Virus record (IMG/VR): IMGVR_UViG_3300032236_001304
Coordinates: 1 to 64,000 of that record
Length of the DNA stretch: 64,000 nucleotides
DNA from: a virus
Direction: 5' to 3' (one strand)
Notes under the pieces: generated by a model
Database searches by the model: none
Told to the model about the DNA's origin: nothing
Seen by the model: only the letters and a program-made list of their open reading frames with translations
Position numbers and translations under genes: made by a program
Shown: in pieces, positions 8,462 to 60,996 of the stretch
How the letters are laid out: every line of letters begins with the position of its first letter
Position numbering within the stretch: position 1 is the first letter of the stretch

Positions 8462-8716
8462 ATGGCACATTTAATACCCGGTTCACAACTTATACCCATT
8501 CCACCTAAACCCATCTTTGTAATGCGGTTACACAATTCTATGGATGATATGACCTATAATAGAACAAGAGAGGATATACATAAGTCCGAATTAGTAAAGG
8601 AATACCACGTCATTGTAATTAGAAGTGATAAAGATAAAGATGAGTTTGAGATGTATAATGCAGATAAGATAGAAAGACAAGATTGGAATAAAATAGTTAA
8701 TCAAATATTAAAATAA
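8462..8716 (+). CDS. Protein of unknown function (84 aa)
   Basis: The 84-residue product starts with a Pro/Ile-rich segment (LIPGSQLIPIPPKPIF) and continues with mixed-charge helical and strand stretches. No family is recognised. It follows a host-type promoter and is separated from the next gene by a single base, so the two genes are probably translated together. Confidence 0.55.
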   Translation: MAHLIPGSQLIPIPPKPIFVMRLHNSMDDMTYNRTREDIHKSELVKEYHVIVIRSDKDKDEFEMYNADKIERQDWNKIVNQILK

Positions 8717-8717
8717 A

Positions 8718-8945
8718 ATGAGCGAACAAACACAACAACCACAAGAAGAAACACAAGTACAAGAACCACAATTAGAAATCCAACCAGTTAATTGGTATGA
8801 GTTTGATTGGGATAACAAAATTAAAACAATAGATGATATTAAAGTTATCTTTAAGAGTTTGAAAATGACAGTTAGTGATAAGGCAGAAGAATTTGATGTA
8901 TTAAAACAATATATCAAAGATGAAGTAGCTTACCAAACTAATTAG
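8718..8945 (+). CDS. Acidic, Gln-rich small protein of unknown function (75 aa)
   Basis: The 75-residue product starts MSEQTQQPQEETQVQEPQLE, a low-complexity Gln/Glu-rich segment, followed by a short folded-looking domain with EFDWDNKIKTIDDIKVIFKSL. No family is recognised. It is co-transcribed with the gene at 8462. Confidence 0.55.
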   Translation: MSEQTQQPQEETQVQEPQLEIQPVNWYEFDWDNKIKTIDDIKVIFKSLKMTVSDKAEEFDVLKQYIKDEVAYQTN

Positions 8946-8956
8946 TAAGTTTCCAT

Positions 8957-8965
8957 ATATTTATT
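8957..8965 (+). promoter_or_regulatory. Candidate late promoter element (one mismatch)
   Basis: ATATTTATT differs at one base from the ATATTTATA motif found before many virion genes. It ends 18 bases before the ATG at 8984. Confidence 0.45.
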
Positions 8966-8983
8966 CCTAAAAGGAGTAACATT

Positions 8984-9112
8984 ATGGCAAAAGCTAAATC
9001 AGCGGGTTCGAACAACAAGGTTTCATTCGGAAAAAGAAAAACAGGTTCCGCACAGAAATCTTACAACAAACACAGTCCAAAGCCAAAAACTTATCGTGGA
9101 CAAGGAAGATAG
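8984..9112 (+). CDS. Small basic protein (42 aa)
   Basis: The 42-codon frame encodes a Lys/Arg/Ser/Gly-rich peptide (it starts MAKAKSAGSNNKVSFGKRK and ends KTYRGQGR). AAAGGAG at 8970-8976, 7 bases before the ATG, is one of the very few good Shine-Dalgarno-like sites in the window. A small, highly basic, low-complexity phage protein could be a nucleic-acid-binding or virion-internal protein; no family is recognised. The next gene starts 2 bases after the stop. Confidence 0.6.
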   Translation: MAKAKSAGSNNKVSFGKRKTGSAQKSYNKHSPKPKTYRGQGR

Positions 9113-9114
9113 AA

Positions 9115-9858
9115 ATGTTTAGTAGAGAAGTAACAAATGATTATGGTTCTTATAGTAGAGAAAATGATACTACCATTTTATTTAAAGGAGTATTTGACAA
9201 AAACTTTATAGAACTAAAGACAGTTGACCCTAATACGGAAACTTACAAAGTATTCAATTGTCCTTCTCAATCTATTAATTTCGCAGTAAAGTTGGGGAGT
9301 AATACATATATTCCCCAACATTTATTTGATAGATTAGTAACAGCATATAAAGAAAATAATCCATACTATACCGTAAACGATTTACTTACAATAGAAATGG
9401 ATTTATCTAAAACAATTGCATACATAGAAGGAAAGTATGGTGCAAAGGTAGAAACAAATACAATTACATATGTAGGTTCAACGACATCATTTACATCATC
9501 CGCAGCTAGTGGATCACCATCAGTTACCGGTTCTACTACAAATGTTAATGCAACTACAAAAACAGGTGTAAGTAGTAAGTTAGGTTTAGCAGGAGTTACA
9601 TCATTATCGTTTCAATTTTACAATGATAACATTTCCACCTCTTTAAATGAAGAAGCTATTATACAACATATATTATTTTTATTTGATGAAACAAATGTAA
9701 GAATTAGTGGAAAATATACTAATACTCAGTATCAAAGGAACGATGATTCACAAAGTGTTATATTAGAAAATCTACCGGCATCAACCGATGTAGTTAAGCC
9801 AGTTACAACAAGGGTTACTAATTTAGATGATTATCTAAGAGATGTACAACGAACTTAA
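9115..9858 (+). CDS. Protein of unknown function, possible virion protein (247 aa)
   Basis: The 247-residue product has an N-terminal folded part (about 1-120), a Ser/Thr/Gly/Ala-rich linker (about 121-155, SSAASGSPSVTGSTTN) and a C-terminal part with FQFYNDNISTSLNEE and a terminal LDDYLRDVQRT. Low-complexity Ser/Thr linkers of this kind are common in phage structural proteins, and a late-promoter-like motif lies upstream of its operon. No specific homologue is recognised. Confidence 0.5.
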   Translation: MFSREVTNDYGSYSRENDTTILFKGVFDKNFIELKTVDPNTETYKVFNCPSQSINFAVKLGSNTYIPQHLFDRLVTAYKENNPYYTVNDLLTIEMDLSKTIAYIEGKYGAKVETNTITYVGSTTSFTSSAASGSPSVTGSTTNVNATTKTGVSSKLGLAGVTSLSFQFYNDNISTSLNEEAIIQHILFLFDETNVRISGKYTNTQYQRNDDSQSVILENLPASTDVVKPVTTRVTNLDDYLRDVQRT

Positions 9859-9866
9859 TATTTATA
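9858..9866 (+). promoter_or_regulatory. Candidate late promoter element
   Basis: An exact ATATTTATA begins at the last base of the preceding stop codon and ends 4 bases before the ATG at 9871. With that spacing the transcript would have little or no leader. Confidence 0.5.
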
Positions 9867-9870
9867 TTAT

Positions 9871-10281
9871 ATGGACATCAATAAGTTATTAAAAATTACA
9901 AATATGTACGCTAAAACTAATTGGAGAAAATATTTTGATGAAGGTGCCTCTCCGGCGGTTCATCAATATCTAACTGAAAATGGTGACAGATTATACCCTT
10001 GGATTCTAAAAATTATACAACAAGCAGTTGAAGATAATTTAGAAGAAGTGGCATTGATTAAGTTCACCGATTCTAAAATGTTTGCTACTATCGATAAGAG
10101 TGAGTATAAGGACCTCCTAAATAAAATGATGGAATACTTTATAGAAAAAGAGCAATACGAACAATGTGGAGCTATAAGGGATTTAATTGTATCTATCGAT
10201 AATCCACCTCAACCTAAACCTAAAAGGAAATATACAAAAAGAAAAAAAGTTACAGATGATTATACAAACACAAATATTTGA
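9871..10281 (+). CDS. Protein of unknown function with UvrB/C-like helix (136 aa)
   Basis: The product is mostly helical. Residues about 104-115 (EQYEQCGAIRDLI) resemble the UVR helix found in UvrB, UvrC and McsA (E-x-C-A-x-x-x-R-D), but one short match does not establish function. The C-terminus is Pro/Lys-rich (PPQPKPKRKYTKRKK). The stop overlaps the start region of the first oxygenase gene by 26 bases, which ties it to that operon. Confidence 0.5.
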   Translation: MDINKLLKITNMYAKTNWRKYFDEGASPAVHQYLTENGDRLYPWILKIIQQAVEDNLEEVALIKFTDSKMFATIDKSEYKDLLNKMMEYFIEKEQYEQCGAIRDLIVSIDNPPQPKPKRKYTKRKKVTDDYTNTNI

Positions 10282-10918
10282 TAATATACTTTCTGTTGAA
10301 GAACAAGATATTTTATTAGAGTTTATGGAATCCGATTATAAAAATTGGACATTTTTACCATATATTTCTTTGGATGAAAAAGATGCTAAGATTGCAATTG
10401 ATGAAGGAATACTAAAGCAATTCCCAGCATATACATTTGATATTACAAAATCAAATTCATTAAAATATGAAAATATATTTAATATTTTGAAAAAAATAGA
10501 ATCAAATGTATGTAAAAATATAGGGGTTAAATTTCAACAAAATTATAGATATAAACTAAATTGTCAACCACCAATAGATAATTATACGATTGATGAATTA
10601 TATAAAAATATTCATTATGATAGACAAACTCAACATATGGTAATACTCTATTATGTTAACGACAGTGATGGCGATACTTTACTTTTTAAAAATAAAAGAG
10701 GACATGATGCACCTGCAAATAATAAAACAAAAAAAGAATGTCAGGATGGTATATTTGACAACGTAGAAATAATACAATCAATTACACCAAAGAAAGGTAG
10801 GGCAGTGATATTTGATGGAACATCATTGCATACGGCAGGTTGGTCTAATACGCAAAATAGATACGCGGTAAATCTAAATATAATATTAGAAAATAATAAA
10901 AAAACAAATTTAATATAA
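10256..10918 (+). CDS. 2-oxoglutarate/Fe(II) oxygenase 1 (220 aa)
   Basis: The ATG at 10256 (MIIQTQIFDNILSVEEQ) is preferred over the in-frame upstream ATG at 10187, which lies well inside the preceding gene. The Fe(II) ligands of the prolyl-4-hydroxylase-type fold are visible as H120-x-D122 (HYD) and H192 (SLHTAG), followed by a 2-oxoglutarate-binding Arg in NRYAVN near residue 202. The family hydroxylates amino-acid, nucleotide or small-molecule substrates using O2 and 2-oxoglutarate. This is the first of four consecutive oxygenase genes. It ends in NNKKTNLI, part of a shared C-terminal tail. The substrate is unknown. Confidence 0.8.
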   Translation: MIIQTQIFDNILSVEEQDILLEFMESDYKNWTFLPYISLDEKDAKIAIDEGILKQFPAYTFDITKSNSLKYENIFNILKKIESNVCKNIGVKFQQNYRYKLNCQPPIDNYTIDELYKNIHYDRQTQHMVILYYVNDSDGDTLLFKNKRGHDAPANNKTKKECQDGIFDNVEIIQSITPKKGRAVIFDGTSLHTAGWSNTQNRYAVNLNIILENNKKTNLI

Positions 10919-10922
10919 AATT

Positions 10923-11459
10923 ATGACAACATATATACCGAATCTTTTAACAAAAGAAGAATGTGAACATTTAGTAAAAGAATTTGACAATGAAAAAAAT
11001 AAATATCCAAACGGAGATGATACAAGTGACTTAACAGGTAATTCACTTGGATATTCAAGTAAAAATAATGAATTTAACAAATATTTAAATAAATTAAAAC
11101 CAAAAATATTGGAATTTTATCCTGAAAATACTGACTTGGCCAATGTCAACACATATGTTAGAGAGTATTTGAATAATTCAAAATTGGGTAGACATATAGA
11201 TAGAATGGATATTGGTGCAACGCTTTCATTATGTTTGGAATTTAATATAAAAAATGAATGGCCATTGTGTGCTGAAATAGAGGGAGAGGCAAAATGTTTT
11301 AATTTAAATGTTGGAGATGGATTATTAATGACAACCGCATATAAAACACCACATTGGAGAGATACAATGTTTTGTGATGAAAATGAAAGAGTAGTTCAAC
11401 TTTTTATACATTGGAAAGAAACCGAATATGTAACTAAAAAAATAAAAACAATACTATAA
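10923..11459 (+). CDS. 2-oxoglutarate/Fe(II) oxygenase 2 (178 aa)
   Basis: Fe(II) ligands are H91-x-D93 (HID) and H144 (PHWRD), with R156 (ERVVQLF) as the likely 2-oxoglutarate ligand. The start TYIPNLLTKEECEHLV is typical of P4H-like phage oxygenases and is close to that of oxygenase 4 (IPNFLTKEECNKIL). It begins 4 bases after oxygenase 1 and ends one base before oxygenase 3. The C-terminal tail is KKIKTIL. Confidence 0.82.
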   Translation: MTTYIPNLLTKEECEHLVKEFDNEKNKYPNGDDTSDLTGNSLGYSSKNNEFNKYLNKLKPKILEFYPENTDLANVNTYVREYLNNSKLGRHIDRMDIGATLSLCLEFNIKNEWPLCAEIEGEAKCFNLNVGDGLLMTTAYKTPHWRDTMFCDENERVVQLFIHWKETEYVTKKIKTIL

Positions 11460-11460
11460 A

Positions 11461-11994
11461 ATGGTAACAAAATATGAAAATGTATTATCGGATGAGTTAT
11501 ATATTGAAGTAATCGAATATGTTAATAATATTATAAAAAATAAAAAAACAAAACTTACATCTTCTAATTTAGAATGGGATGATAAGCTTAAAGGAAATAG
11601 TGAAGCAGTTTTAAGATATGAATTTGATAATAGTGATTCATTAATTTTTAAAAAAATAAAAAAAGAACTAGAAAATAAAATTCCATATTTTATACAAAGA
11701 ATGGTTTTACATTTGTGGCCTAATTTAAGTTATATAACTTGGCACGATGATAGTCAATCTACTGCCGCATTAACTTTATATTTGAATAAAAATTGGGATG
11801 ATAATTGGGGTGGTTATTTAATGTACAAAGAAGATAATGAAATAAAGGCAATTAAACCGGAAAAGAATTTAGCAGTTTTACAAGAAAATAAAGTTGGACA
11901 TTGTGTAACAACAATTAATATGGGAGCAGATACTAGGATATCATTACAATTTTTTTTAAAGCAAAATTTAAAAAAAATAAAAACATTACTTTAA
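11461..11994 (+). CDS. 2-oxoglutarate/Fe(II) oxygenase 3 (177 aa)
   Basis: The Fe(II) triad reads H95-x-D97 (WHDD) and H147 (VGHCV), with R159 (TRISLQFF) as probable 2-oxoglutarate ligand. The strand TAALTLYLNKNWDDNWGG after the HxD is characteristic of the P4H/PiuC-like group, where WGGxL follows. Sequence outside the core differs strongly from oxygenases 1 and 2, so this is not a recent duplication. The C-terminus is KKIKTLL, nearly identical to that of oxygenase 2. Confidence 0.82.
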   Translation: MVTKYENVLSDELYIEVIEYVNNIIKNKKTKLTSSNLEWDDKLKGNSEAVLRYEFDNSDSLIFKKIKKELENKIPYFIQRMVLHLWPNLSYITWHDDSQSTAALTLYLNKNWDDNWGGYLMYKEDNEIKAIKPEKNLAVLQENKVGHCVTTINMGADTRISLQFFLKQNLKKIKTLL

Positions 11995-12021
11995 TCTATT
12001 TAAATTAATAAAAAATATAAT

Positions 12022-12600
12022 ATGGCATTTACACATATAGAAATACCAAATTTTTTAACAAAAGAAGAATGTAATAAAATATTAGATTTTTCTTTAAATA
12101 ATTTAGAATTAAAACCAGGAGTAACTGGTCCAACTGGGGAATTATCAAAATATAGAAAATCAAGTATTGAATTATATCCGTATTATAATAAATTTCCATT
12201 TTTATTAGAAAAAATAAGTAAAGTAGTTGATGAATATATAAATGTAAAAGGACATGATTTAGAATATAGAAAAGAAAAATTTCAATTCACACAATATAAA
12301 GTAGGTGAATATTATAATTGGCATGGGGATAGAGAACCCGGTGGTAAAAATGATATTTTAATTTCAGGTCGTTATTGTACTATTGTTATACAATTAAATG
12401 ATGAATATAATGATGGTAATTTAGAATTGGAATTATTTAATGGAGAGCATGTAATAGTTGAAAAAGGAATAGGTAATATGGTTATATTTTTAGCTGAACT
12501 TAAACATAGAGTAGTTCCAGTAAGTTATGGTGAACGATATACCTTAGTAAATTGGATAGGTATTAAACCAAAAGAAAACTATAAAAAAACATTAATATAG
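12022..12600 (+). CDS. 2-oxoglutarate/Fe(II) oxygenase 4 (192 aa)
   Basis: The ligands are H101-x-D103 (WHGD), H162 (LKHRV) and R172 (ERYTLVNW). The surrounding FQFTQYKVGEYYNWHGD and the DGNLELEL strand are typical of PiuC/P4H-type oxygenases. It is separated from oxygenase 3 by 27 bases. The C-terminus is YKKTLI. Four different oxygenases in a row suggest sequential or alternative hydroxylations of a phage- or host-derived substrate, perhaps a sugar, nucleotide or peptide; no substrate can be read from the sequence. Confidence 0.83.
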   Translation: MAFTHIEIPNFLTKEECNKILDFSLNNLELKPGVTGPTGELSKYRKSSIELYPYYNKFPFLLEKISKVVDEYINVKGHDLEYRKEKFQFTQYKVGEYYNWHGDREPGGKNDILISGRYCTIVIQLNDEYNDGNLELELFNGEHVIVEKGIGNMVIFLAELKHRVVPVSYGERYTLVNWIGIKPKENYKKTLI

Positions 12601-12622
12601 TTTAGGTAAAATTAAAAAGTAG

Positions 12623-12631
12623 ATATTTATA
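12623..12631 (+). promoter_or_regulatory. Candidate late promoter element
   Basis: An exact ATATTTATA lies 25 bases before the ATG at 12657, in a 56-base intergenic gap with no other feature. Confidence 0.5.
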
Positions 12632-12656
12632 TTAAAATAATAAAAAGAATAATAAT

Positions 12657-14156
12657 ATGAGAACAGTATTAATAGGTTCGGATTTTATGTATGATTCCAA
12701 TGGTAATTTAAAATTATTGGAAATAAATACAAATATAACTTGGGAAGGTTTGATGAAAGTTGAAGAAACCGCTGATATATTTGATTTAACAGGTTTAGAT
12801 ACTTTTGTTAAAACTAATAATTTTAGTCAAATACACTATGTTGGTGATATTGTAGATTTAAGTAATTTATTAAAATCATATTGTGATGAAAATTCATTAT
12901 TATATTCTTTTTATCATGTAGGTGGAGATGCTTTAACCGTTCCATATATTGAAGATGCGGAAGACATATTAATAATAAGAAGTGCATATGATACAACTGC
13001 ATTAGTAGATGATACATATTGTGCTGATAAGATTAATTTTATGAATCTTATTAAAAATGAATCATTTGGTTCTCAATTTGCTGTAATTAATGATAATAAT
13101 ATTTTACAAAACAATATAACAGAAATTATTGATAATGGAATTCATCCAAATTTTATTTTAAAAGCAAGTAGCCCTCATTATGATGTTGAGGTATATCCAA
13201 AAGTATTTAAAGTAACAAACCAAACTGAATTAGATACTTTAATTGCAAATAATGTTACAAATGAGTATTTCTTAATGCCATTTTATCTTAATACAAATAA
13301 AACATATAATGGACACCTTGAAATTATAAGAAGCTATAATTTATTAGTTCCACCAAATTTAGAATCAATTCAAATTGGACAATATACTAAATTAAACGAA
13401 AATATATTATTAGATAATGTTACATATAATGAAACAACATTTGAAATTGATGCAATGTATAGAGATAGTTATGTATCAGTTCAAAAAATGTCAGCATTAC
13501 CAAAGGTATTAGATACCGATTTAATTGAAATGGCAGATGGTACATTTAAAACTCCAGCTGAATTAGTAGTAGGTGATTTATTAAAAACAATAGATATTCC
13601 AAATCCTAATAATGAAGATACAGCAAATCCTACTATGAATTATGGTATTACATATGATACATTTATTGGTGGTACAAATTATTCATCAAAACCATTATTA
13701 GCTAAAAAACAAATTAATTCATTTGTAGTAATAAATACTATTACATTTGATGATGATACTAACTGGTATGATGCTGAGTTTTCTTCGTATTTAATAAACA
13801 GAAATGATAATATACAATTTGAAACTTTGATGGAATTAAAATCTGGTGATATTATGTTATTGATAGATAGTTCATCTGAAACATTAAATATTGTTGAAAA
13901 AACAATTAAATCAACACATACAACAAAACAAATTTTTAGTGGTTGGGAATTAACTGTTGAAATTCCTCACTTATTTTTAACTAAAAATCCAGAATCCACG
14001 GTTAATGCTAATTCATATGTTCAGTATGTTGCTGTTCAACACAACGCAGCTTGTCCATATGGTGCATGTTCACCTTGTAGTAATCCATGTGCAAGTTGTC
14101 TTAAACCAAATCCATATTGTGCACCTCAAAATGTATGTGTTTCAACGCATTGTTAA
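12657..14156 (+). CDS. Large protein with ATP-grasp-like and Hint-like segments and Cys-rich tail (499 aa)
   Basis: Residues 1-29 include SDFMYDSNGNLKLLEINTN, resembling the metal-binding end of ATP-grasp ligases (D...LEIN) but placed at the N-terminus. Residues about 100-200 (IIRSAYDTTALVDDTY, DKINFMNLI, FILKASSPHYDVEVYPKVF) are also ATP-grasp-like. Residues about 282-455 resemble a Hint/intein-type fold: T287-D-L-I-E-M-A-D-G, PAELVVGDLLKT and a later LKSGDIMLL. The usual catalytic Cys at the start of Hint is absent (VLDTDLI), so self-splicing is unlikely. The last 34 residues (466-499) hold eight cysteines in Pro/Cys-rich spacing. It lies in the oxygenase cluster but lacks the shared Lys-Leu tail. 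It may be a virion or modification protein; the assignment is tentative. Confidence 0.4.
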   Translation: MRTVLIGSDFMYDSNGNLKLLEINTNITWEGLMKVEETADIFDLTGLDTFVKTNNFSQIHYVGDIVDLSNLLKSYCDENSLLYSFYHVGGDALTVPYIEDAEDILIIRSAYDTTALVDDTYCADKINFMNLIKNESFGSQFAVINDNNILQNNITEIIDNGIHPNFILKASSPHYDVEVYPKVFKVTNQTELDTLIANNVTNEYFLMPFYLNTNKTYNGHLEIIRSYNLLVPPNLESIQIGQYTKLNENILLDNVTYNETTFEIDAMYRDSYVSVQKMSALPKVLDTDLIEMADGTFKTPAELVVGDLLKTIDIPNPNNEDTANPTMNYGITYDTFIGGTNYSSKPLLAKKQINSFVVINTITFDDDTNWYDAEFSSYLINRNDNIQFETLMELKSGDIMLLIDSSSETLNIVEKTIKSTHTTKQIFSGWELTVEIPHLFLTKNPESTVNANSYVQYVAVQHNAACPYGACSPCSNPCASCLKPNPYCAPQNVCVSTHC

Positions 14157-14188
14157 TATAATAAATTAATTTAATAAAAATACAAAAT

Positions 14189-14281
14189 ATGTCAAAAATA
14201 ATAACCGATTCAGATATCAATATAATGAATACAACATTAAACCAAGTGGGTGCATTAATTATTGCGGTTCATACTTCTTAA
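14189..14281 (+). CDS. Putative 30-residue peptide
   Basis: The ATG at 14189 opens a 30-codon frame (MSKIITDSDINIMNTTLN, then QVGALIIAVHTS) ending in TAA at 14279-14281. It fills most of the gap between the Cys-rich protein and the zinc-ribbon gene. The first half is polar and acidic, the second hydrophobic. It could be a small membrane-associated or substrate peptide. Coding capacity is not proven at this length. Confidence 0.35.
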   Translation: MSKIITDSDINIMNTTLNQVGALIIAVHTS

Positions 14282-14307
14282 TAAAATAATACTAAAAATA
14301 AGTTATA

Positions 14308-14634
14308 ATGGATTTAGATTTTAAAGAAATTACCAGTGCGTGGTATAATAAATTTGTACATACAAACGAAATGAAAGAATTGGCAGATAATAGATTAAAT
14401 ATCTGCTTAGATTGTCCATCTAAATTGGAGGGTATTACAGGATTTCCATTTAGATTAAGATGTGGTGAATGTGGTTGTCCATTAAAAGCAAAAGTATATA
14501 CGGATAAAACATATTTAGATGAAGGGGGTTCTTGTCCATTAAACAAATGGAAAGATATCGAAATAGAACACTTTAAAAAATATAATAAGGCAGAATTCAT
14601 AAAACCGGACAAAAACAAAAAAACATTATTGTAA
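14308..14634 (+). CDS. Zinc-ribbon protein (108 aa)
   Basis: Cysteines occur as C33-x2-C36, C52-x2-C55-x-C57-P and C76-P, with the pattern R..IC..C...C..CGCPLKAK...CPLNKW. This Cys pattern is known from a small phage/bacterial zinc-ribbon family usually found near glycosyltransferase and oxygenase genes, but its biochemical role is not established. The C-terminus is KNKKTLL, the tail shared with the neighbouring oxygenases. The stop is followed immediately by the next ATG. Confidence 0.65.
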   Translation: MDLDFKEITSAWYNKFVHTNEMKELADNRLNICLDCPSKLEGITGFPFRLRCGECGCPLKAKVYTDKTYLDEGGSCPLNKWKDIEIEHFKKYNKAEFIKPDKNKKTLL

Positions 14635-15321
14635 ATGTCATTATTAATTAATGATGAATTAATATGGGTTTCAACTCCCAAGTCTGCAAGTACTTCTATA
14701 TTTAATGCTTTTTTAAATTCTAAATTAAACTTAAAAAAAGTAAATGGCTGGGAGTGGAATCAAAATGCACATTTGAGTTTGAACATATTAAAAAATGAAT
14801 TTGGTGATAAAGAAAGTGTTTGCATTACAAGAGATTGGTTTCAAAAATGGATTAGTGCGTTAAATTATATTTGGGATGTTATTGAATATTCTACTCCATT
14901 TGAAACAATATGTAAATGGGAAGAATTAGATAATACTTTTATATATAAACTATTTGATGAATCTTTTTTAAATACATTACATTTTTGCAGTAATGAAGGT
15001 TTAATGGTTTGTTTTCGTAAAATATTATTAAATCCAAATAATTTTACAGATAAGGATTATGAACCTTGGTTTAGAATGATGGGGTTGTTAATTTCAGAAA
15101 AATATTACAAAAGTAATCAAAAATGCACTTACGAATTTGATATTAAAGATATTGATAAATTTATCAATTTTATTGAAAATAGATTTGGTGAAAAACTTGT
15201 ATTAGAAAATACAAATAAATCAACAAGAAGAGAAAATAAAATAATCTTAAATGATGAATTAAAACAATTTGTTTGGGATAATTTTGAAAAAAGATTTGAG
15301 AAAACAAATCATTTAATATAA
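14635..15321 (+). CDS. Sulfotransferase-like protein (228 aa)
   Basis: The N-terminus has WVSTPKSASTSI (residues 11-22), matching the 5'-phosphosulfate loop of PAPS-dependent sulfotransferases (PKxGSTS). CITRDWFQKWISAL (residues 63-76, R66 and S74) matches the 3'-phosphate-binding strand and helix. The family transfers sulfate from PAPS to sugars or other small molecules. The length fits a minimal sulfotransferase domain. It is joined without a gap to the zinc-ribbon gene before it and to the glycosyltransferase-like gene after it. The C-terminus is EKTNHLI. The substrate is unknown. Confidence 0.65.
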   Translation: MSLLINDELIWVSTPKSASTSIFNAFLNSKLNLKKVNGWEWNQNAHLSLNILKNEFGDKESVCITRDWFQKWISALNYIWDVIEYSTPFETICKWEELDNTFIYKLFDESFLNTLHFCSNEGLMVCFRKILLNPNNFTDKDYEPWFRMMGLLISEKYYKSNQKCTYEFDIKDIDKFINFIENRFGEKLVLENTNKSTRRENKIILNDELKQFVWDNFEKRFEKTNHLI

Positions 15322-16581
15322 ATGAAAAATACAAATATAATAATATATGTTCATCATTATTATTGTGATTCATTATTATATAAATTAATACATAATACTA
15401 GCGATAAACAAATTTATATAGATGATACTAAAATTGGATATGTAATTTGTAAATATAAAAATATTTCAATTAAATTAGTATTTAATCCAAATATACACGA
15501 TGCGAGTGATGGCTATCATTTAATTGATTTTTATACAACAAAAAAACAAAAATTTATAGATACAAAATACAATAATATTGAATTAGATTCTATAAACAAT
15601 TTAGATGATTCAATTTCGGTAGCAAATGTTATTTATAATAATATCAAAGATAAAAAAGATTGGATTGTACTTTTTTTAAGAACAGAAAAGTTATTTTATA
15701 AATACGAGAACAAATTAAATGATATAAATTTTCTTAAAATAGAAAATTCATTAGAACAATTAAAAAATCATAAAATAATATCGGATAATTGCTTTTTGAA
15801 TGATATCATTGAAGTTAGATATCCAAATTATTATTTTGCATTTACTAATACAATATATCAATGGAACGAAATGATTGGTATTAGATGGTATTATGAATTT
15901 AATCAAATTTATAATAATTTAAATTTTGAGTATAATATAGGGTATTCAGTAAGAAATTTAAAAGAACATAGAACAAAATTATTAATAGAATTATCAAAAC
16001 TAAAAATTAATAAATTATTTTTAACTAAAAGTGATACTGCACAATATGGTGAATACTTTAAAGAACTACCACTTTTAACAAATATAACTACAAATTCAAC
16101 AATAGGAAAAGAAGATTTTGATAATTTAAAATATATACAATTTTCATTTAATATTGGATTAGATTTATTTTTTAGAATTTTTTCAAAATCAAAAATGCAA
16201 ATATTAGATGAAAGTTGGGCATGGTCAACCGGAGATTTTACATCACAGTATTTATCAGAAAAAACAATTGGATTAATAATGGCAGGCATACCATTTATAT
16301 CAATACATCCATATCCATTAGAATTGTTAGAAAAAATTATAGGAATTAGAGAACATCCATTTAAAAAAGAATCAATTTATATAAAAGGAAATCCGGTTAA
16401 AACTGCCAATTTTATTAAAACTTTTATGGATGATTTTGAAAAAAATTATATATTGTGTAAAGATTGGTTAGATGAATGTAGAGAATTATTTTTAAATAAG
16501 ATAAACACAGAAAATTCTTTGTTAGATTTAATGCTTATTTCTTTTAAAAAGGAAAATAACGTAAGTATTAAATTATTATAA
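15322..16581 (+). CDS. Glycosyltransferase-like protein (T/SEK family, 419 aa)
   Basis: Near residues 310-325 it carries LSEKTIGLIMAGIPFIS, the same motif as the proteins at 3867-5150 and 6072-8411 (TEKS/TEKT...GKPxM). The rest is divergent, rich in Ile/Asn/Lys. The family has a GT-B-like look and may use nucleotide sugars; this is inference. It abuts the sulfotransferase gene, which suggests the two act on the same glycan. The C-terminus is VSIKLL. Confidence 0.5.
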   Translation: MKNTNIIIYVHHYYCDSLLYKLIHNTSDKQIYIDDTKIGYVICKYKNISIKLVFNPNIHDASDGYHLIDFYTTKKQKFIDTKYNNIELDSINNLDDSISVANVIYNNIKDKKDWIVLFLRTEKLFYKYENKLNDINFLKIENSLEQLKNHKIISDNCFLNDIIEVRYPNYYFAFTNTIYQWNEMIGIRWYYEFNQIYNNLNFEYNIGYSVRNLKEHRTKLLIELSKLKINKLFLTKSDTAQYGEYFKELPLLTNITTNSTIGKEDFDNLKYIQFSFNIGLDLFFRIFSKSKMQILDESWAWSTGDFTSQYLSEKTIGLIMAGIPFISIHPYPLELLEKIIGIREHPFKKESIYIKGNPVKTANFIKTFMDDFEKNYILCKDWLDECRELFLNKINTENSLLDLMLISFKKENNVSIKLL

Positions 16582-17311: not shown

Positions 17312-17614
17312 ATGATAACAATGCCACAAACACCGATTACTGACCATTCGTTTAAGAAGTGGGGAGCAATTAAAATAGAGGAAAATGATGGTGAATCCGA
17401 TTTTTATTATTGGATATTACCATTACCAAAAGAAGATGATGATTTTAGTGATAGACCTACACTTATATCGATAGCAAGTGATGAGTGGAAAAATATGGAT
17501 TTAAATGAGGGAGAATATTTGGTAACTTTATTTGATAATTTACCAATGTTAGAAACCGAGGAAGAAATTGAATTATTATATAAAATCTTAACTAAAGAAA
17601 ATTTAACAAAATGA
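17312..17614 (+). CDS. Protein of unknown function (100 aa)
   Basis: The product is acidic with a Trp/Tyr-containing beta-like centre (SDFYYWILPLPKEDDDF) and an acidic helical C-terminus. The ATG at 17312 would give an almost leaderless mRNA from the promoter at 17277-17307; the ATG at 17321 (MPQTPITDHSF) is an equally possible start. The stop overlaps the start of the methyltransferase gene by 4 bases, so the two are probably translationally coupled. No family is recognised. Confidence 0.55.
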   Translation: MITMPQTPITDHSFKKWGAIKIEENDGESDFYYWILPLPKEDDDFSDRPTLISIASDEWKNMDLNEGEYLVTLFDNLPMLETEEEIELLYKILTKENLTK

Positions 17615-18252
17615 TTTATAACGAAGATTGTTTAGATACACTTAATCGTAATTTAGAATACGATTATATTATCACCTCTCCACCGGATTTTGATGAGATT
17701 GGTGCAGATACTAAAGATATAAAACCTTATATTGAATTCTTAAAAGAACGTTTTGCAAAATTTAATCCTAAAAACGATGTAGTAACAATATTCGTTTCAG
17801 ATAGGAAAGCAGAAGGAACTGTCATTCAAAAGCATAATATTATTTCTAATATAATGATTGAGAATGGGTGGCAATTAAAGACTCAAAAAATTTGGGTTAA
17901 AAAAGAAGATACAATTGATATGTACCGACATGGTTATACTTTTATTCTTACATTTGGTAGAAACAATTCTAAACATCCATTATTACCGGATGTATTTAGT
18001 GAACGATTTGTACCAGCTACACCAGAATATACTTACAATTTTTCACCTAATATTGTAAAACAATTTGTTGAAAAATATACAACTAAAAATCAAATAGTTT
18101 TTGACCCATTTATGGGTAGTGGAACTACGGCAATTGTATGTGTAGAAAATGGTAGAAATTATGTAGGTAGTGAAATTATTGAAATAACCTGTAAAATTGC
18201 TGAGAATAGAATTAGTAAAATTATAAATGCAGATAAATTTTTTAAACTATAA
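17611..18252 (+). CDS. DNA methyltransferase-like protein with altered catalytic motif (213 aa)
   Basis: The domain order is that of beta-class N4/N6 amino-methyltransferases: a catalytic-motif region at the N-terminus (TSPPDF, residues 22-27) and the SAM-binding motif near the C-terminus (VFDPFMGSGTTAIV, about 162-176). The start IYNEDCLDTL is typical for the family. The catalytic motif is normally [DNS]PP[YFW]; here the fourth position is Asp (SPPD), so base methylation may be impaired or the enzyme may have changed. The SAM site looks intact. It lies between a small acidic protein and an HD hydrolase. Confidence 0.65.
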   Translation: MIYNEDCLDTLNRNLEYDYIITSPPDFDEIGADTKDIKPYIEFLKERFAKFNPKNDVVTIFVSDRKAEGTVIQKHNIISNIMIENGWQLKTQKIWVKKEDTIDMYRHGYTFILTFGRNNSKHPLLPDVFSERFVPATPEYTYNFSPNIVKQFVEKYTTKNQIVFDPFMGSGTTAIVCVENGRNYVGSEIIEITCKIAENRISKIINADKFFKL

Positions 18253-19499: not shown

Positions 19500-20390
19500 A
19501 TGGCAGAATATTCACAAGTATTACCCTTACGAACCGATATAAAGGTGGTAGACCAATTTGGATTCTTACCCCTATCAATTAATAGACCTACCAAAGAATC
19601 GAAGCTAAAGTGGCACGATGCATATCTTAACGATGGTATGGATGAACAACGCCGTAGTGACACATCAGAGTTTTTACCAGGCTATACATTCTCCGAATTC
19701 CACGCAGGCTTAGCTGAGCAAGTATATAAGTTTTGGAGTATGAAAGGTAGTAAGGTAGTTGACCCATTTGCAGGTAGAGTAACAAGAGGATTTGTTGCAA
19801 CTAAGTTAGGTAGAGATTATACCGGATTTGAAATTTCACCAAGAACATATGAAAGAGTACAAACACATTTTGAAGCGCATGGGGTTAAACCACATGTAAT
19901 TAATAGTGATGGTACTTTAATGGAAGAAATTTCAGATAAGAGTGCAGATTTAATTTTTACTTGTCCACCTTACTTTAATTTAGAAAGATACGAATCAGTT
20001 CCTGGTCAATTAAGTGATGAGAATAGATACGAATCATTTATGAGCAAAATTGATGTTTGTATTTCTAATTGCTATAGAGTTTTAAAGAGTGGAGCATTTG
20101 CATGTTGGGTTGTAGGTGATTTAAGGACGGGTGGTGAGTTTCAAAACTTTCATGGAGATGTTATCAATTCTTTCAAAAAGCACGGATTTAATCAGCACGA
20201 TATAGTTATACTAGAAAATATTTCACCATTCGCAGCATTACAAATTGGAAAAACTGCGGCAAAACGTTACACATCGAAGGTACATGAATACCTTTTAGTT
20301 TTCAGAAAGCCAGGAGATTATGAGATTCCAAAATATTGCTCACCTGATGAATTAGAACAAGAAACAAAATTAGCAGAATTTTTTAAATAA
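19500..20390 (+). CDS. DNA methyltransferase (N4/N6 amino type, 296 aa)
   Basis: The SAM-binding motif VVDPFAGRVTRG lies at residues 86-97 and the catalytic motif TCPPYFN at 154-160, giving the order I then IV. GRDYTGFEISP (104-114) is the typical acidic-loop motif after motif I, and VLKSGAFACWVVGDLR is the usual later strand. The enzyme should methylate exocyclic amino groups of C or A in DNA, protecting phage DNA or altering regulation. No restriction partner is nearby. It starts 5 bases after a terminator, with a promoter overlapping that terminator. Confidence 0.75.
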   Translation: MAEYSQVLPLRTDIKVVDQFGFLPLSINRPTKESKLKWHDAYLNDGMDEQRRSDTSEFLPGYTFSEFHAGLAEQVYKFWSMKGSKVVDPFAGRVTRGFVATKLGRDYTGFEISPRTYERVQTHFEAHGVKPHVINSDGTLMEEISDKSADLIFTCPPYFNLERYESVPGQLSDENRYESFMSKIDVCISNCYRVLKSGAFACWVVGDLRTGGEFQNFHGDVINSFKKHGFNQHDIVILENISPFAALQIGKTAAKRYTSKVHEYLLVFRKPGDYEIPKYCSPDELEQETKLAEFFK

Positions 20391-22834: not shown

Positions 22835-23491
22835 ATGTACTTACAAACACCTTACAAAATCAATTACGATACAACGAAATATGATTTTAGAAAAATAGTT
22901 TCAGAAATGTTAGAAGTATGGGAAGGTGATACTACCCCATTAGAAGATTTACATACATTGGAACATTATGATTTATTAGTTAGAGAAAAAGACCAATCTA
23001 CAATTTGGCATAAAAGATATTATGAAAAATATAAAACACAATTCTTACCAACCTATTTAGAATTAGTTAAAGAACTTAAAGAAAGGTTTGGGTATGATGA
23101 AATTATATATCAGGCTATCCCAACGTTCAGAGTTCAATTAGCGGAAGGTAATTTAGGAGTTGGTGAATGGCATAAAGATAGTACTTACAATCATGGAGTG
23201 ACAGAAGTAAACTTTTGGATGCCATTTGTAAATACCAACGAACAAAATACAATATGGATGGAGAGTGTAGAGGATAAAGGTGATTACAAACCATATACGG
23301 TTAATTACGGTGAAATATTGGTATTTAGTGGTGCTAATCTATTTCATGGTAATAAAAACAATGATAGTAACCAAACTAGAGTATCAGTTGATTTTCGTTT
23401 AGTAGATCCAGCTAAATTTATACCAAATGAGGCAGGTTCAATTAATATGAAGGCAAAATTTGATATTGGTGGATATTTTGAAAAAATTTAA
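22835..23491 (+). CDS. 2-oxoglutarate/Fe(II) oxygenase 5, phytanoyl-type (218 aa)
   Basis: Fe(II) ligands are H113-x-D115 (WHKD), H171 (LFHGN) and the 2-oxoglutarate Arg R182 (TRVSVDFR). The layout with WMPFVN after the HxD and a late GEILVFSGANLFHGN is that of the phytanoyl-CoA-hydroxylase/ectoine-hydroxylase-like group rather than the P4H-like group at 10256-12600. It sits between sugar-modification genes and the Fe-S assembly genes. Substrate unknown. Confidence 0.78.
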   Translation: MYLQTPYKINYDTTKYDFRKIVSEMLEVWEGDTTPLEDLHTLEHYDLLVREKDQSTIWHKRYYEKYKTQFLPTYLELVKELKERFGYDEIIYQAIPTFRVQLAEGNLGVGEWHKDSTYNHGVTEVNFWMPFVNTNEQNTIWMESVEDKGDYKPYTVNYGEILVFSGANLFHGNKNNDSNQTRVSVDFRLVDPAKFIPNEAGSINMKAKFDIGGYFEKI

Positions 23492-23500
23492 TTAAAAATT

Positions 23501-23911
23501 ATGGCATATAGTGATAAAGTATTGGACCATTATAGTAACCCTAAGAATGTAGGAACTCTGGATAAGAGTAAATCTAATGTGGGTACTGGTTTAGTAGGAG
23601 CACCTGAATGTGGTGATGTGATGAGATTACAAATCGAAGTGGAGAACAACATCATAACAGATGCTAAGTTCAAAACCTTTGGATGTGGTTCTGCAATTGC
23701 AGCTAGTTCCCTAGCAACTGAATGGTTGAAAGGAAAGAGTTTGGATGAGGCAGTAACAATTGATAATATGGATTTGGTAGAGGAATTGAATCTACCACCT
23801 GTTAAAATACATTGTTCGGTGTTGGCTGAGGATGCAATCAAATCGGCAATTAACGATTATAGAAAAAAACAAGGATTAGAAGAATTAATTTTTGAAGAAA
23901 CTCACATATAA
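23501..23911 (+). CDS. iscU: Fe-S cluster scaffold protein IscU
   Basis: The full-length product (136 aa) keeps all IscU ligands: C37 and D39 (APECGDVM), C62 (TFGCGSAIA), H104 and C105 (KIHCSVLAEDA), at nearly the same positions as in bacterial IscU. The HscA-binding motif LPPVK is present at 98-102. IscU accepts sulfur from IscS and iron to build [2Fe-2S] clusters, which HscA/HscB release to carriers. No IscS is seen here, so the phage protein would have to use the host desulfurase. It is followed by iscA with a 1-base overlap. A phage IscU points to high Fe-S demand during infection. Confidence 0.92.
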   Translation: MAYSDKVLDHYSNPKNVGTLDKSKSNVGTGLVGAPECGDVMRLQIEVENNIITDAKFKTFGCGSAIAASSLATEWLKGKSLDEAVTIDNMDLVEELNLPPVKIHCSVLAEDAIKSAINDYRKKQGLEELIFEETHI

Positions 23912-24243
23912 TGGTAACAATTTCAGAAAAAGCATTAAATCATGTAATCAATCTAATGGTGGAAGCCGGAATGACACCGGAAACACATAATTTAAGAGTT
24001 GGTGTTAAGGGTGGTGGATGTAGTGGATTATCTTATACAATGGATTTTGATGACATTATAACCGATATGGATGAAGTGGTAGAAGTAGATAGTGGATTGA
24101 AAGTAGTAATAGATAAAAAATCAGTTTTATACCTATTTGGAACACAACTTACTTATTCCGATGGTTTGAATGGTAAAGGATTTCAATGGGAAAATCCTAA
24201 CGCAAGTAGAACGTGTGGATGTGGAGAAAGTTTTGCATTATAA
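23911..24243 (+). CDS. iscA: A-type Fe-S carrier protein IscA
   Basis: The 110-residue product has the three A-type carrier cysteines, C37 (KGGGCSGLSY) and C102-x-C104 (TCGCGESF), at family spacing. A-type carriers hold Fe-S clusters or iron and deliver them to apo-proteins. The start codon overlaps the last base of the iscU stop (TAATG), so translation is probably coupled. The next gene has its own host-type promoter. Confidence 0.92.
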   Translation: MVTISEKALNHVINLMVEAGMTPETHNLRVGVKGGGCSGLSYTMDFDDIITDMDEVVEVDSGLKVVIDKKSVLYLFGTQLTYSDGLNGKGFQWENPNASRTCGCGESFAL

Positions 24244-59202: not shown

Positions 59203-59234
59203 TTTGGTTTTTTAAATAAAATTTGTTACATTTA
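59203..59234 (+). promoter_or_regulatory. Host-type promoter before the first GT7-LamG gene
   Basis: TTTG at 59203-59206, 20 bases, then TACATTTA at 59227-59234. The -7 box ends 3 bases before the ATG at 59238, so an RNA from here would be leaderless. Confidence 0.6.
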
Positions 59235-59237
59235 AGT

Positions 59238-60719
59238 ATGGTTAATCATAAATTAGCAATCATTGTACCATATAGAGATAGACGTGATCATTTAGATACG
59301 TTTATTCCACATATGAAGGAATTTCTTAAAGATAAAGGAATTGCTTACAAAATATTTGTCATTGAACAATCTGATGATAAACCTTTTAATTATGGAAAAC
59401 TTTGTAATGCAGCATTTAGTTTAATAAAAGATGATTTTGATTATTTTTGTTTTCATGATGTAGACCAATTACCAATTAATGATAGTTGTGATTATTCATA
59501 TAAAGAATATCCAGTACATTTAGCAACTAGAGCTTCTGCACATAATGATAGATTACCTTACTTACAATATTTTGGTGGTGCAGTTATTTTTACTAAAGAA
59601 GATTTTGAAAAAATTAATGGTTATTCAAATGAATACTATGGATGGGGATATGGTGATATAGATTTAATATTTAGATGTTCTCAAAAAGAATTAGATGTAG
59701 ATTATGTGTATGCATATCCAAAAGTAAATAGTGAATATGAAATTGGTGAAATGGAAGAAACGGATTCATTAAAATCAGAAAAAATACATTCAATAAAATT
59801 TGATGGAGAAACATTTTTAGAAATTAAACCAAACAAATTTTTAAAAAGTTTAACATCAGATAGTTTTACCGTTTCAATGTGGATTAAACCAGAAGATAAT
59901 TTATTGAAACAACAATACATTTTAAGTTGGCCGGGATTTAATTCAGGTGTATCATTAAATTTAGATAATCAATTAATTTTCAATTTTTGGAACTCACAAA
60001 AAATTTATTATTACAATTATAAAAAAATTAAACCAAACGAATGGAATCATTTAATTGTTAATGTAAACTTCGATGATAATAAATTAAAAATGTGGTTAAA
60101 TGGAATTGAATTACAACCAAACAAAGATGCATCGGTTAATTTTAAAACACCATTATTTGATTATTCGGAATCAAACATTTATATAGGATGTGGTTCAATT
60201 AATAAAGAATTTTATACAGGTGAATTAAGTAATCTTTATATGTTTGATTATACTTTAACACCAGGTGAAATAGAAAAATTATATTTGAATGGATTATATT
60301 TAAACAAATTTTTACAAACAAAATTTGAACCTGTGGTAAGATATGAATTTGATAACTTTTATAAACAATATTTTATAGATAAAAGCAAAACCCATAATCA
60401 CGCTAAAGTATTTGGAAAAGCAGGAACAGATTATTTAAAATTAGTATCAGAAGTAACAATAGAAAAAGTATCAGAAATTCCAATACCACATAGAGTAGCA
60501 GGTGAATATCAATCATTAGAGCACGATGGTGATTTAGATATCAAAGATAAGTTTAATGGATTTGATCCTGATACATTAGAAAATAAAAAGATTTTCTTTG
60601 ATGATATATTTTCAAAAAGATTTTCTACGGATAAAATAGGATTGAGTTCTCTTAAATTTAAATTAATTGAAAATGAAGAATTTGATAATAAAACAAATTG
60701 GATTAAAGTAATATTATAA
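59238..60719 (+). CDS. GT7 galactosyltransferase interrupted by LamG domain, copy 1 (493 aa)
   Basis: I use the ATG at 59238 (MVNHKLAIIVPYRDRR), since the frame upstream of it lies over the promoter. Residues 1-~165 are the N-terminal half of a beta-1,4-galactosyltransferase (GT7): VPYRDR (10-15), FHDVDQLP (D74, D76, metal) and NGYSNEYYGWGYGDID (127-142, degenerate acceptor/metal motif). About 178-345 is a LamG-like beta-sandwich (TVSMWIKPED, GVSLNLDNQLIF, NEWNHLIVNVNF, LKMWLNGIEL, FYTGELSNLYMFDYTLTPGEI). About 413-493 resembles the C-terminal end of GT7, with RVAGEYQSLEHDG and a degenerate GLSSLKFKL. First of three such proteins. Confidence 0.7.
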   Translation: MVNHKLAIIVPYRDRRDHLDTFIPHMKEFLKDKGIAYKIFVIEQSDDKPFNYGKLCNAAFSLIKDDFDYFCFHDVDQLPINDSCDYSYKEYPVHLATRASAHNDRLPYLQYFGGAVIFTKEDFEKINGYSNEYYGWGYGDIDLIFRCSQKELDVDYVYAYPKVNSEYEIGEMEETDSLKSEKIHSIKFDGETFLEIKPNKFLKSLTSDSFTVSMWIKPEDNLLKQQYILSWPGFNSGVSLNLDNQLIFNFWNSQKIYYYNYKKIKPNEWNHLIVNVNFDDNKLKMWLNGIELQPNKDASVNFKTPLFDYSESNIYIGCGSINKEFYTGELSNLYMFDYTLTPGEIEKLYLNGLYLNKFLQTKFEPVVRYEFDNFYKQYFIDKSKTHNHAKVFGKAGTDYLKLVSEVTIEKVSEIPIPHRVAGEYQSLEHDGDLDIKDKFNGFDPDTLENKKIFFDDIFSKRFSTDKIGLSSLKFKLIENEEFDNKTNWIKVIL

Positions 60720-60729
60720 AATAAAGTAT

Positions 60730-60996
60730 ATGGCAAAAGAAGTAAAAACCGATAACTTAAGTATCGAAGAAAGAACAGTTTTGGCTTTAGAAAGACAAGC
60801 AAAAGCATATGAAAGAATGGCTGGTGCACAAGAAGACTTAGCTGATTGGTTTCATGGATTCGATAGAAAGACTTGGACTGAAAAGTTAGAGTGGTACTTA
60901 CATGAGTTCTATCAAATTATGAAAACTAAGCAAGTAGGTGGTTCTATATCTAGACCTGATAGAGGTTATGAGAGAGAAGCAGATGAGCAAAAATAA
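60730..60996 (+). CDS. Small helical protein of unknown function (88 aa)
   Basis: The product is charged and helical (SIEERTVLALERQAKAYERMAG) with a Trp-containing centre (ADWFHGFDRKTWTEKLEWYL). No family is recognised. It lies between copies 1 and 2 of the GT7-LamG genes, and its last 14 bases overlap the start of copy 2. It could be a partner of these enzymes. Confidence 0.55.
   Translation: MAKEVKTDNLSIEERTVLALERQAKAYERMAGAQEDLADWFHGFDRKTWTEKLEWYLHEFYQIMKTKQVGGSISRPDRGYEREADEQK

What the first reader, a model, noticed from the sequence alone, without database searches (positions are those of the whole stretch)
10256..12600. Four consecutive, divergent 2-oxoglutarate/Fe(II) oxygenases (six in the window)
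Genes at 10256, 10923, 11461 and 12022 each have an intact HxD...H...R site but little similarity outside the core, and two more (22835, 50332) lie elsewhere. Isolated phage oxygenases are known; a tandem array of four different ones beside zinc-ribbon, sulfotransferase-like and glycosyltransferase-like genes suggests a multi-step modification pathway. The substrate (nucleotide, sugar or peptide) is not evident.
Basis: partly seen in the sequence, partly recalled or inferred. Interest (0 to 1): 0.7.

Follow-up and report, generated by a model that had tools for sequence, protein, structure and literature searches.

The report
Tagged phage enzymes around cysteine-rich protein
Four side-by-side oxygen-using enzymes in an uncultured phage turn out to belong to a widespread, undescribed set of protein-modifying enzymes that all end in the same short tail and sit beside a protein carrying a fast-changing, cysteine-rich tip, which suggests a virus-encoded assembly line for making modified mini-proteins.

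Summary
The four genes are intact, mutually unrelated 2OG/Fe(II) oxygenases, each with a 65-69% ortholog in a sister contig that has six in a row. Tandem phage oxygenase arrays are not new (PMC9599517).

All four, plus the zinc-ribbon, sulfotransferase-like and GT-like neighbours, end in the same tail, roughly K-x-[TSKN]-[LI]-[LI]-COOH. In related uncultured phage contigs 40% of proteins carry it, against 2-3% at other offsets. It marks at least 15 families (oxygenases, radical SAM, sulfotransferase-like, SGNH-like and others) and spares other genes. Homologs from contigs without the module lack it. Tail frequency peaks at 68-73% just downstream of one untailed gene, P12657.

P12657 combines a glutathione-synthetase-like ATP-grasp, an intein-type Hint domain ending in invariant His-Asn, and a hypervariable cysteine-rich peptide: 67 unique sequences, all with even Cys counts.

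Best reading: a phage protein-modification assembly line whose enzymes dock by the tail, probably on P12657, and modify its cysteine-rich tip. The tail and the association are shown. Docking, cleavage and substrate are inferred. The other oxygenases (22835, 50332, and a seventh outside the window) are untailed bystanders.

The parts
10256..10918 (+). 2OG/Fe(II) oxygenase A (PHROG 274 group, mislabelled 'DNA endonuclease V'); HYD120, distal His and Arg; C-terminal tail ...KKTNLI
10923..11459 (+). 2OG/Fe(II) oxygenase B (PHROG 2954 group, mislabelled 'ferrochelatase'); prolyl-4-hydroxylase-like fold; tail ...KKIKTIL, disordered in the model
11461..11994 (+). 2OG/Fe(II) oxygenase C; tail ...KKIKTLL
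12022..12600 (+). 2OG/Fe(II) oxygenase D (PHROG 61 group); tail ...NYKKTLI
12657..13481 (+). Hub protein, residues 1-275: circularly permuted, glutathione-synthetase-like ATP-grasp domain (EINT motif near the N-terminus)
13500..14045 (+). Hub protein, residues 282-463: Hint/intein-fold domain without an N-terminal Cys nucleophile, ending in invariant His462-Asn463
14046..14153 (+). Hub protein, residues 464-499: hypervariable peptide with 8 Cys (AACPYGACSPCSNPCASCLKPNPYCAPQNVCVSTHC)
14308..14634 (+). Small zinc-ribbon protein; tail ...KNKKTLL
14635..15321 (+). Sulfotransferase-like protein (TPKSAST P-loop-like motif; no significant Pfam or PDB hit); tail ...KTNHLI
15322..16581 (+).
10898..10915 (+). 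C-terminal tail of oxygenase A
11436..11456 (+). C-terminal tail of oxygenase B
11971..11991 (+). C-terminal tail of oxygenase C
12580..12597 (+). C-terminal tail of oxygenase D
14614..14631 (+). C-terminal tail of the zinc-ribbon protein
15301..15318 (+). C-terminal tail of the sulfotransferase-like protein
16561..16578 (+). C-terminal tail of the GT-like protein

Best explanation
The four oxygenases are part of a phage-encoded protein-modification module. Its enzymes (2OG hydroxylases; in relatives also radical SAM, sulfotransferase-like, SGNH-like, SET-like, SDR-like, methyltransferase-like and Trp-halogenase proteins) carry one common C-terminal tail, K-x-[TSKN]-[LI]-[LI]-COOH. The tail works as a docking signal that gathers them on a shared partner. 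The best candidate partner is the untailed hub protein encoded in their midst (P12657): a glutathione-synthetase-like ATP-grasp domain (a fold that in relatives handles peptide C-termini), then a Hint domain, then a hypervariable Cys-rich peptide. Proposed sequence: (1) tailed enzymes bind the hub; (2) they hydroxylate, sulfate or otherwise modify the Cys-rich peptide (Pro, Trp and Tyr are enriched there); (3) disulfides form; (4) the Hint domain may release the peptide by Asn463 cyclisation, as an RiPP-like mini-protein, or keep it displayed. Shown: the oxygenase identities; the tail, its protein-level conservation and its concentration beside the hub; the hub's architecture; the invariant His-Asn; hypervariability with even Cys counts. 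Inferred: docking, the identity of the docking partner, substrate, cleavage and purpose.
For: Tail: 442 of 1106 unique proteins from the related loci end in [LI][LI], against 0.9-3.7% at offsets 1-15, with K at -4 in 51% and T/S at -3 in 50%. Families are bimodal: 16 of 51 are at least 60% tailed and 29 are under 20%. This repeats in 851 new proteins, 27% against about 2.5%, from loci fetched with the untailed hub as bait. Tail rate by gene distance from the hub: 69, 73, 68 and 73% at +1 to +4, 18% at +12, 9% at +16; control loci 4/108. Homologs of P10923 in contigs without the module end at the domain edge without a tail. Bacterial radical SAM relatives also lack it. Synonymous codons vary, and the distance from stop to next start ranges from overlap to over 100 bases, so the signal is in the protein. 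The tail is disordered in the P10923 model. Hub: intein/BIL/Hedgehog fold (E to 1e-7) and yeast glutathione synthetase (E=1.4e-4); long relatives carry three intein-like domains by Pfam, supported by NCBIfam; H462-N463 invariant in 34/34. Peptide: 67 unique sequences, all with even Cys counts (8x33, 6x31, 10x2, 4x1); Cys 33x, Trp 3.6x, Pro 3.5x, Tyr 1.5x enriched; identity 15.5% against 46% and 38% upstream. The tailed set includes Trp halogenase (314 bits), SET (borderline) and an oxygenase nearest prolyl hydroxylases. APS kinase is a common neighbour.
Against: No interaction, cleavage or modification has been measured, and no complex could be modelled here. Tailed enzymes also occur scattered far from the hub in the 335-kb and 176-kb contigs, so the partner may be something else or there may be more than one. 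Some hub relatives lack the Cys peptide and end at ...ILVHNK although tailed enzymes are present, so the peptide cannot be the only purpose. Peptide Cys number needs only about 6 changes on the tree (all even), so the 67 are not independent. The hub's Hint lacks the N-terminal Cys and the residue after His-Asn varies, so cleavage is unproven. Carbamoyltransferase, GT and SGNH-like genes also fit a glycan product.
Confidence: 0.42

Rival explanations
1. The tail is a sorting or packaging signal: it sends enzymes to the virion (capsid or tail appendage), comparable in role to a capsid-targeting sequence or an encapsulin cargo-loading peptide. The hub is a virion appendage protein whose Cys-rich tip contacts the host surface.
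For: One tail on many unrelated enzymes; a flexible C-terminal extension; hypervariable tips are typical of host-recognition proteins (general knowledge); one hub relative (L250) ends in a sequence that by eye resembles an S74 tail-fibre chaperone.
Against: The S74 resemblance has no Pfam or PDB support. Oxygenases, radical SAM and sulfotransferases need cytosolic cofactors. Tail frequency centres on the hub gene, not on structural genes.
Confidence: 0.2
2. A surface-glycan modification set: oxygenases, sulfotransferases, carbamoyltransferase, SGNH-like proteins and GTs decorate host or phage glycans, and the tail gathers them on a glycan-synthesis complex.
For: Carbamoyltransferase, APS kinase, epimerases, GTs and SGNH-like genes lie in the same phages, and several scattered tailed genes are SGNH-like or sulfotransferase-like by motif.
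Against: The carbamoyltransferase is mostly untailed (6 of 29), as are the epimerases and most GTs of the sugar cluster at 58-82 kb. A SET-like protein and a Trp halogenase are hard to place on a glycan. A glycan does not explain the Cys-rich hub.
Confidence: 0.17
3. The tail is a degron: a hydrophobic C-terminus read by a host or phage protease to limit enzyme lifetime.
For: C-terminal hydrophobic residues can serve as degrons (general knowledge).
Against: Does not explain why the tail is limited to modification enzymes next to the hub, or the conserved K-x-T/S-L-I pattern.
Confidence: 0.06
4. The tail is a by-product of a DNA element at gene ends (translation start, promoter, terminator or recombination site).
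For: Gene order is mosaic, with oxygenases inserted between neighbours, as expected of cassettes.
Against: Codons are shuffled synonymously, amino-acid identity exceeds codon identity at -1 to -3, and the distance to the next start varies from overlap to over 100 bases.
Confidence: 0.02
5. Ordinary auxiliary oxygenases with no common task (2OG drawdown, DNA repair or DNA hypermodification), as proposed for cyanophages.
For: Published for cyanophage oxygenases (PMC3037559).
Against: A tail shared with non-oxygenase enzymes and the hub-centred layout; P10923 is nearest to prolyl hydroxylases. Nucleoside chemistry was not tested.
Confidence: 0.1

Closest known systems
2OG-Fe(II) oxygenase sets of T4-like cyanophages and pelagiphages (PMC3037559, PMC9599517; Synechococcus phages Sf-FP1, ACG-2014b)
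   Same: Several non-orthologous oxygenases of PHROG groups 61, 274 and 2954 near each other; Sf-FP1 also has a tryptophan halogenase in the array.
   Different: No shared C-terminal tail and no hub found there.
RiPP biosynthetic clusters (e.g. proteusins; YhhC-type cyclophane peptides)
   Same: A variable Cys-rich peptide at the C-terminus of a large leader-like protein, beside radical SAM, 2OG oxygenase, halogenase and methyltransferase-like genes. Weak NCBIfam match of oxygenase C to YhhC (E=4e-4, far below cut-off).
   Different: The putative leader is a folded ATP-grasp plus Hint protein. A shared C-terminal tail on the enzymes is not a RiPP hallmark I know of. No product has been shown.
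Inteins, bacterial intein-like (BIL) domains and Hedgehog Hint
   Same: Fold (TM to 0.75) and invariant His-Asn at the C-terminal junction; long hub relatives carry three intein-like domains.
   Different: The window's Hint lacks the N-terminal Cys, so splicing is not expected; fused to ATP-grasp and a Cys-rich peptide.
Eukaryotic glutathione synthetase / LysX-ArgX ATP-grasp ligases
   Same: Circularly permuted ATP-grasp-like fold, EINT motif and an invariant Lys.
   Different: Fused to Hint; substrate unknown; not tested for activity.
Encapsulin cargo-loading peptides and T4 capsid-targeting sequences
   Same: One short signal on several unrelated proteins.
   Different: Sequence unlike those I know; no compartment identified (from memory, not tested).

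Membership tests
2OG/Fe(II) oxygenase (PF13640-like) | HxD...H triad and distal Arg | tested here: met
   All four; in family B the distal Arg is nearly, not fully, conserved.
2OG/Fe(II) oxygenase (PF13640-like) | Double-stranded beta-helix fold | tested here: met
   P10923 model matches P4H/PHD2. The others by profile: two pass the Pfam cut-off, 10256 is below it but matches PHROG 274 at 7.5e-23.
DNA endonuclease V / ferrochelatase (PHROG labels) | Endonuclease V or ferrochelatase family match | tested here: not met
   No Pfam match to either; 2OG oxygenase signatures instead.
Intein / Hint domain | HINT fold | tested here: met
   PDB matches to E=1.3e-7.
Self-splicing intein | N-terminal Cys/Ser/Thr nucleophile | tested here: not met
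   No Cys at the start of the Hint in the window and its close relatives; present in the extra Hint domains of long relatives.
Self-splicing intein | Terminal His-Asn | tested here: met
   34/34 in A5; 74/75 by pattern and the 75th by eye.
ATP-grasp (glutathione-synthetase type) | Fold and Mg/ATP residues | tested here: inconclusive
   Fold match E=1.4e-4 with low TM; E22, N24, K169 and R225 invariant; no activity test.
RiPP cluster | Precursor with conserved leader and variable core | tested here: met
   Conserved 463-aa region, hypervariable 25-48 aa peptide in the aligned set.
RiPP cluster | Core peptide is modified and released | not testable with these tools
   Needs mass spectrometry.
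Known defence system (PADLOC) | Match of hub or modifying enzymes to a defence-system core model | tested here: not met
   Only a generic 'CAS-associated 2OG' model for the oxygenases and intein-like homing-endonuclease models for the long hub.
DNA hypermodification pathway | Modified nucleosides in phage DNA | not testable with these tools
   No nucleoside data; no TET/JBP-type match among the Pfam hits.

The most novel reading that the evidence does not exclude
Uncultured phages of a widespread aquatic lineage make hypervariable, disulfide-rich mini-proteins on a self-cleaving ATP-grasp/Hint carrier. They modify these with a swappable set of oxygenases, radical SAM, sulfotransferases and halogenase, recruited by one universal C-terminal docking tail: a viral assembly line comparable to RiPP or conotoxin maturation, with a plug-in tag that lets new enzymes join by gene shuffling.
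Probability: 0.3. Interest if true: 0.96.

Novelty: categorically new. Interest (0 to 1): 0.85.

Why it matters
A single short tail on more than a dozen unrelated enzyme families, concentrated around one hub gene and absent from homologs outside the module, would be a new organising principle for viral enzymes: modular recruitment by a C-terminal tag. It offers a directly testable answer to an old puzzle, namely what phage 2OG oxygenases act on, at least in this lineage. If the Cys-rich tips are the substrate, these phages hold a large unexplored library of modified mini-proteins and a portable tag for directing modifying enzymes. It also corrects misleading labels ('DNA endonuclease V', 'ferrochelatase') on common phage oxygenases.

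Tried and rejected
DNA-level explanation of the tail: rejected by variable spacing and synonymous codon change (one search was conditioned on both proteins being tailed, so conservation was re-measured unconditioned). Sampling artefact from radical SAM-seeded loci: repeated with the untailed hub as bait and again with oxygenase B. Composition artefact: AT-rich control contigs show background levels. Recent duplication of the four oxygenases: rejected. S74 tail-fibre chaperone at the end of the L250 hub: suggestive by eye, unsupported by Pfam and PDB search. Sulfotransferase identity of the two ST families: only weak profile support. SGNH identity of family f2: no PDB match, motif only. Hub in cellular genomes or named phages: none found. 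DNA search for relatives of 8500-16400 in named phages: none. Single-sequence viral-contig scans with 11461 and 10923 found nothing. Literature searches for a shared phage C-terminal tag or an ATP-grasp/Hint/Cys-rich phage protein returned nothing relevant.
Full report
Setting. The window is bases 1-64000 of an 88,442-base virus record. Its structural genes resemble those of Flavobacterium phage immuto and an uncultured huge phage. Shine-Dalgarno-like motifs are rare upstream of genes in this lineage (70/1339), as in immuto (1/37), which weakly suggests a Bacteroidota host.

The observation. Four + strand genes at 10256, 10923, 11461 and 12022 encode 177-220 aa proteins with HxD, a distal His and a distal Arg. 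Profiles support 2OG/Fe(II) oxygenase identity for three. The fourth, 10923, has no Pfam oxygenase hit and carries a PHROG label 'ferrochelatase'; its AlphaFold model (pLDDT 88.8) matches prolyl-4-hydroxylases. The four have almost no mutual similarity, but each has a 65-69% ortholog in contig L008, where two further oxygenases are inserted between orthologs C and D, making six in a row. Recent duplication and decay are excluded.

Arrays as such are known. Cyanophage Sf-FP1 has at least four 2OG oxygenases in the array next to a tryptophan halogenase. ACG-2014b has four together, two labelled 'DNA endonuclease V' and one 'ferrochelatase'. Contigs L009 and L010 have about six each. Co-located non-orthologous sets are published for pelagiphages with 'ferrochelatase' partners (PMC9599517), and cyanophages carry up to five (PMC3037559). 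The pelagiphage 'ferrochelatases' may be family B oxygenases; I did not test those records.

A shared tail. The four end in KKTNLI, KKIKTIL, KKIKTLL and YKKTLI. The zinc-ribbon, sulfotransferase-like and GT-like genes next door end in KKTLL, KTNHLI and VSIKLL. In G000, 7 of 8 genes of this block end in [LI][LI] against 6 of 82 elsewhere (p=1.7e-6). A scan with a radical SAM gene from the sister module gave 80 contigs; across the related loci 442 of 1106 unique proteins end in [LI][LI], against 0.9-3.7% at any other offset, with K at -4 in 51% and T/S at -3 in half. Families are bimodal: radical SAM 54/59, sulfotransferase-like 39/40, f4 34/36 and family B oxygenases 12/12 within the lineage, against 0/46 for the hub and 0 for many flanking families. 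Other tailed families by Pfam include SET (borderline) and SDR (below cut-off) and, in L250, a Trp halogenase; SGNH-like and methyltransferase calls rest on sequence motifs read by eye.

The tail is a protein feature. Distance to the next start varies from overlap to over 100 bases, all Leu/Ile codons are used, and conservation at -1 and -2 (0.69, 0.74) exceeds positions -5 to -20 without conditioning on the tail. In P10923 the tail (residues 170-178) is the only stretch of very low confidence in the model. Family B homologs in contigs without the module (L257, L259-L261) stop at the domain edge, and bacterial radical SAM relatives lack the tail.

The hub. In most contigs the tailed genes surround P12657-like genes. 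With this untailed hub as bait, a further 851 unseen proteins show 27% tails. Tail rate is 69, 73, 68 and 73% at +1 to +4 from the hub and falls to 9% at +16; control loci 4/108. The AlphaFold model (pLDDT 83.7, 34 sequences) shows an N-terminal domain matching yeast glutathione synthetase and, weakly, LysX/ArgX, and residues of about 280-464 matching inteins, BIL and Hedgehog Hint domains. Long relatives contain up to three intein-like domains. H462-N463 is invariant. After it comes a peptide with 15.5% mean identity (Cys excluded), against 46% and 38% for the two domains. Among 67 unique peptides every Cys count is even. The tree needs at least 6 changes of Cys number, all by even steps, so parity is kept through change, although the 67 are not independent. 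Hubs were not found in the GTDB genome scan or in 50,697 named phage records.

Mechanism. The simplest reading of one tail on many modification enzymes, concentrated around one untailed gene, is recruitment to a common partner. The hub is the best candidate: it is in the module, it has a fold whose relatives handle peptide C-termini (established for glutathione synthetase and LysX/ArgX), and it carries the most plausible substrate. The peptide is rich in Cys, Trp, Pro, Gly and Tyr. Halogenase, prolyl-hydroxylase-like, sulfotransferase-like and SET-like proteins fit a peptide better than a nucleoside. Asn cyclisation at N463 could release the peptide. None of docking, modification or cleavage is shown. 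Hub relatives ending at ...ILVHNK without a Cys peptide, and tailed enzymes far from the hub, warn that the partner or purpose may be broader.

Verdict. Oxygenases: confirmed, new members of a known kind. Module: not described in any library or paper searched here. Defining features of inteins are only partly met, of RiPPs only partly testable, and of defence systems not met, so I rate the system as categorically new, with its function unproven.

Noticed in passing
window 22835-23491, 23501-23911, 23911-24243: An untailed PhyH-like oxygenase lies directly before IscU-like and IscA/SufA-like iron-sulfur assembly genes (identified by eye), which could supply iron-sulfur clusters; no link to the module was tested.
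   Followed up: no
window 59223-63852: Three consecutive genes look like galactosyltransferase-type GT domains fused to LamG-like C-terminal parts, paralogous to each other.
   Followed up: no
window 15322-16581 versus L008:9946-11001: The window phage lacks the tailed radical SAM gene that nearly all related modules have; a tailed GT-like gene follows the sulfotransferase instead.
   Followed up: partly
L250:1841-3844: A hub relative with HN, a Cys-containing stretch and a C-terminus resembling by eye the S74 intramolecular chaperone of tail fibres; not supported by Pfam or PDB search.
   Followed up: partly
L165 and L179 (same 211-kb contig): Two hub genes about 38 kb apart in one contig, one with 11 tailed genes nearby and one with a single tailed gene.
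   Followed up: no
L076:3191-5929: 912-aa hub with three tandem intein-like domains, each beginning with Cys and ending in His-Asn.
   Followed up: partly
PHROG 274, 2954 and 3531: Common phage oxygenases are labelled 'DNA endonuclease V' and 'ferrochelatase'; the sequence motifs and the P10923 model indicate 2OG oxygenases.
   Followed up: yes
L008:2592-3407: APS kinase and a nucleotidyltransferase-like gene recur beside the module and could supply PAPS for the sulfotransferase-like proteins.
   Followed up: partly
window 17611-18252 and 19500-20390: Two DNA methyltransferase-like genes lie close downstream of the module.
   Followed up: no
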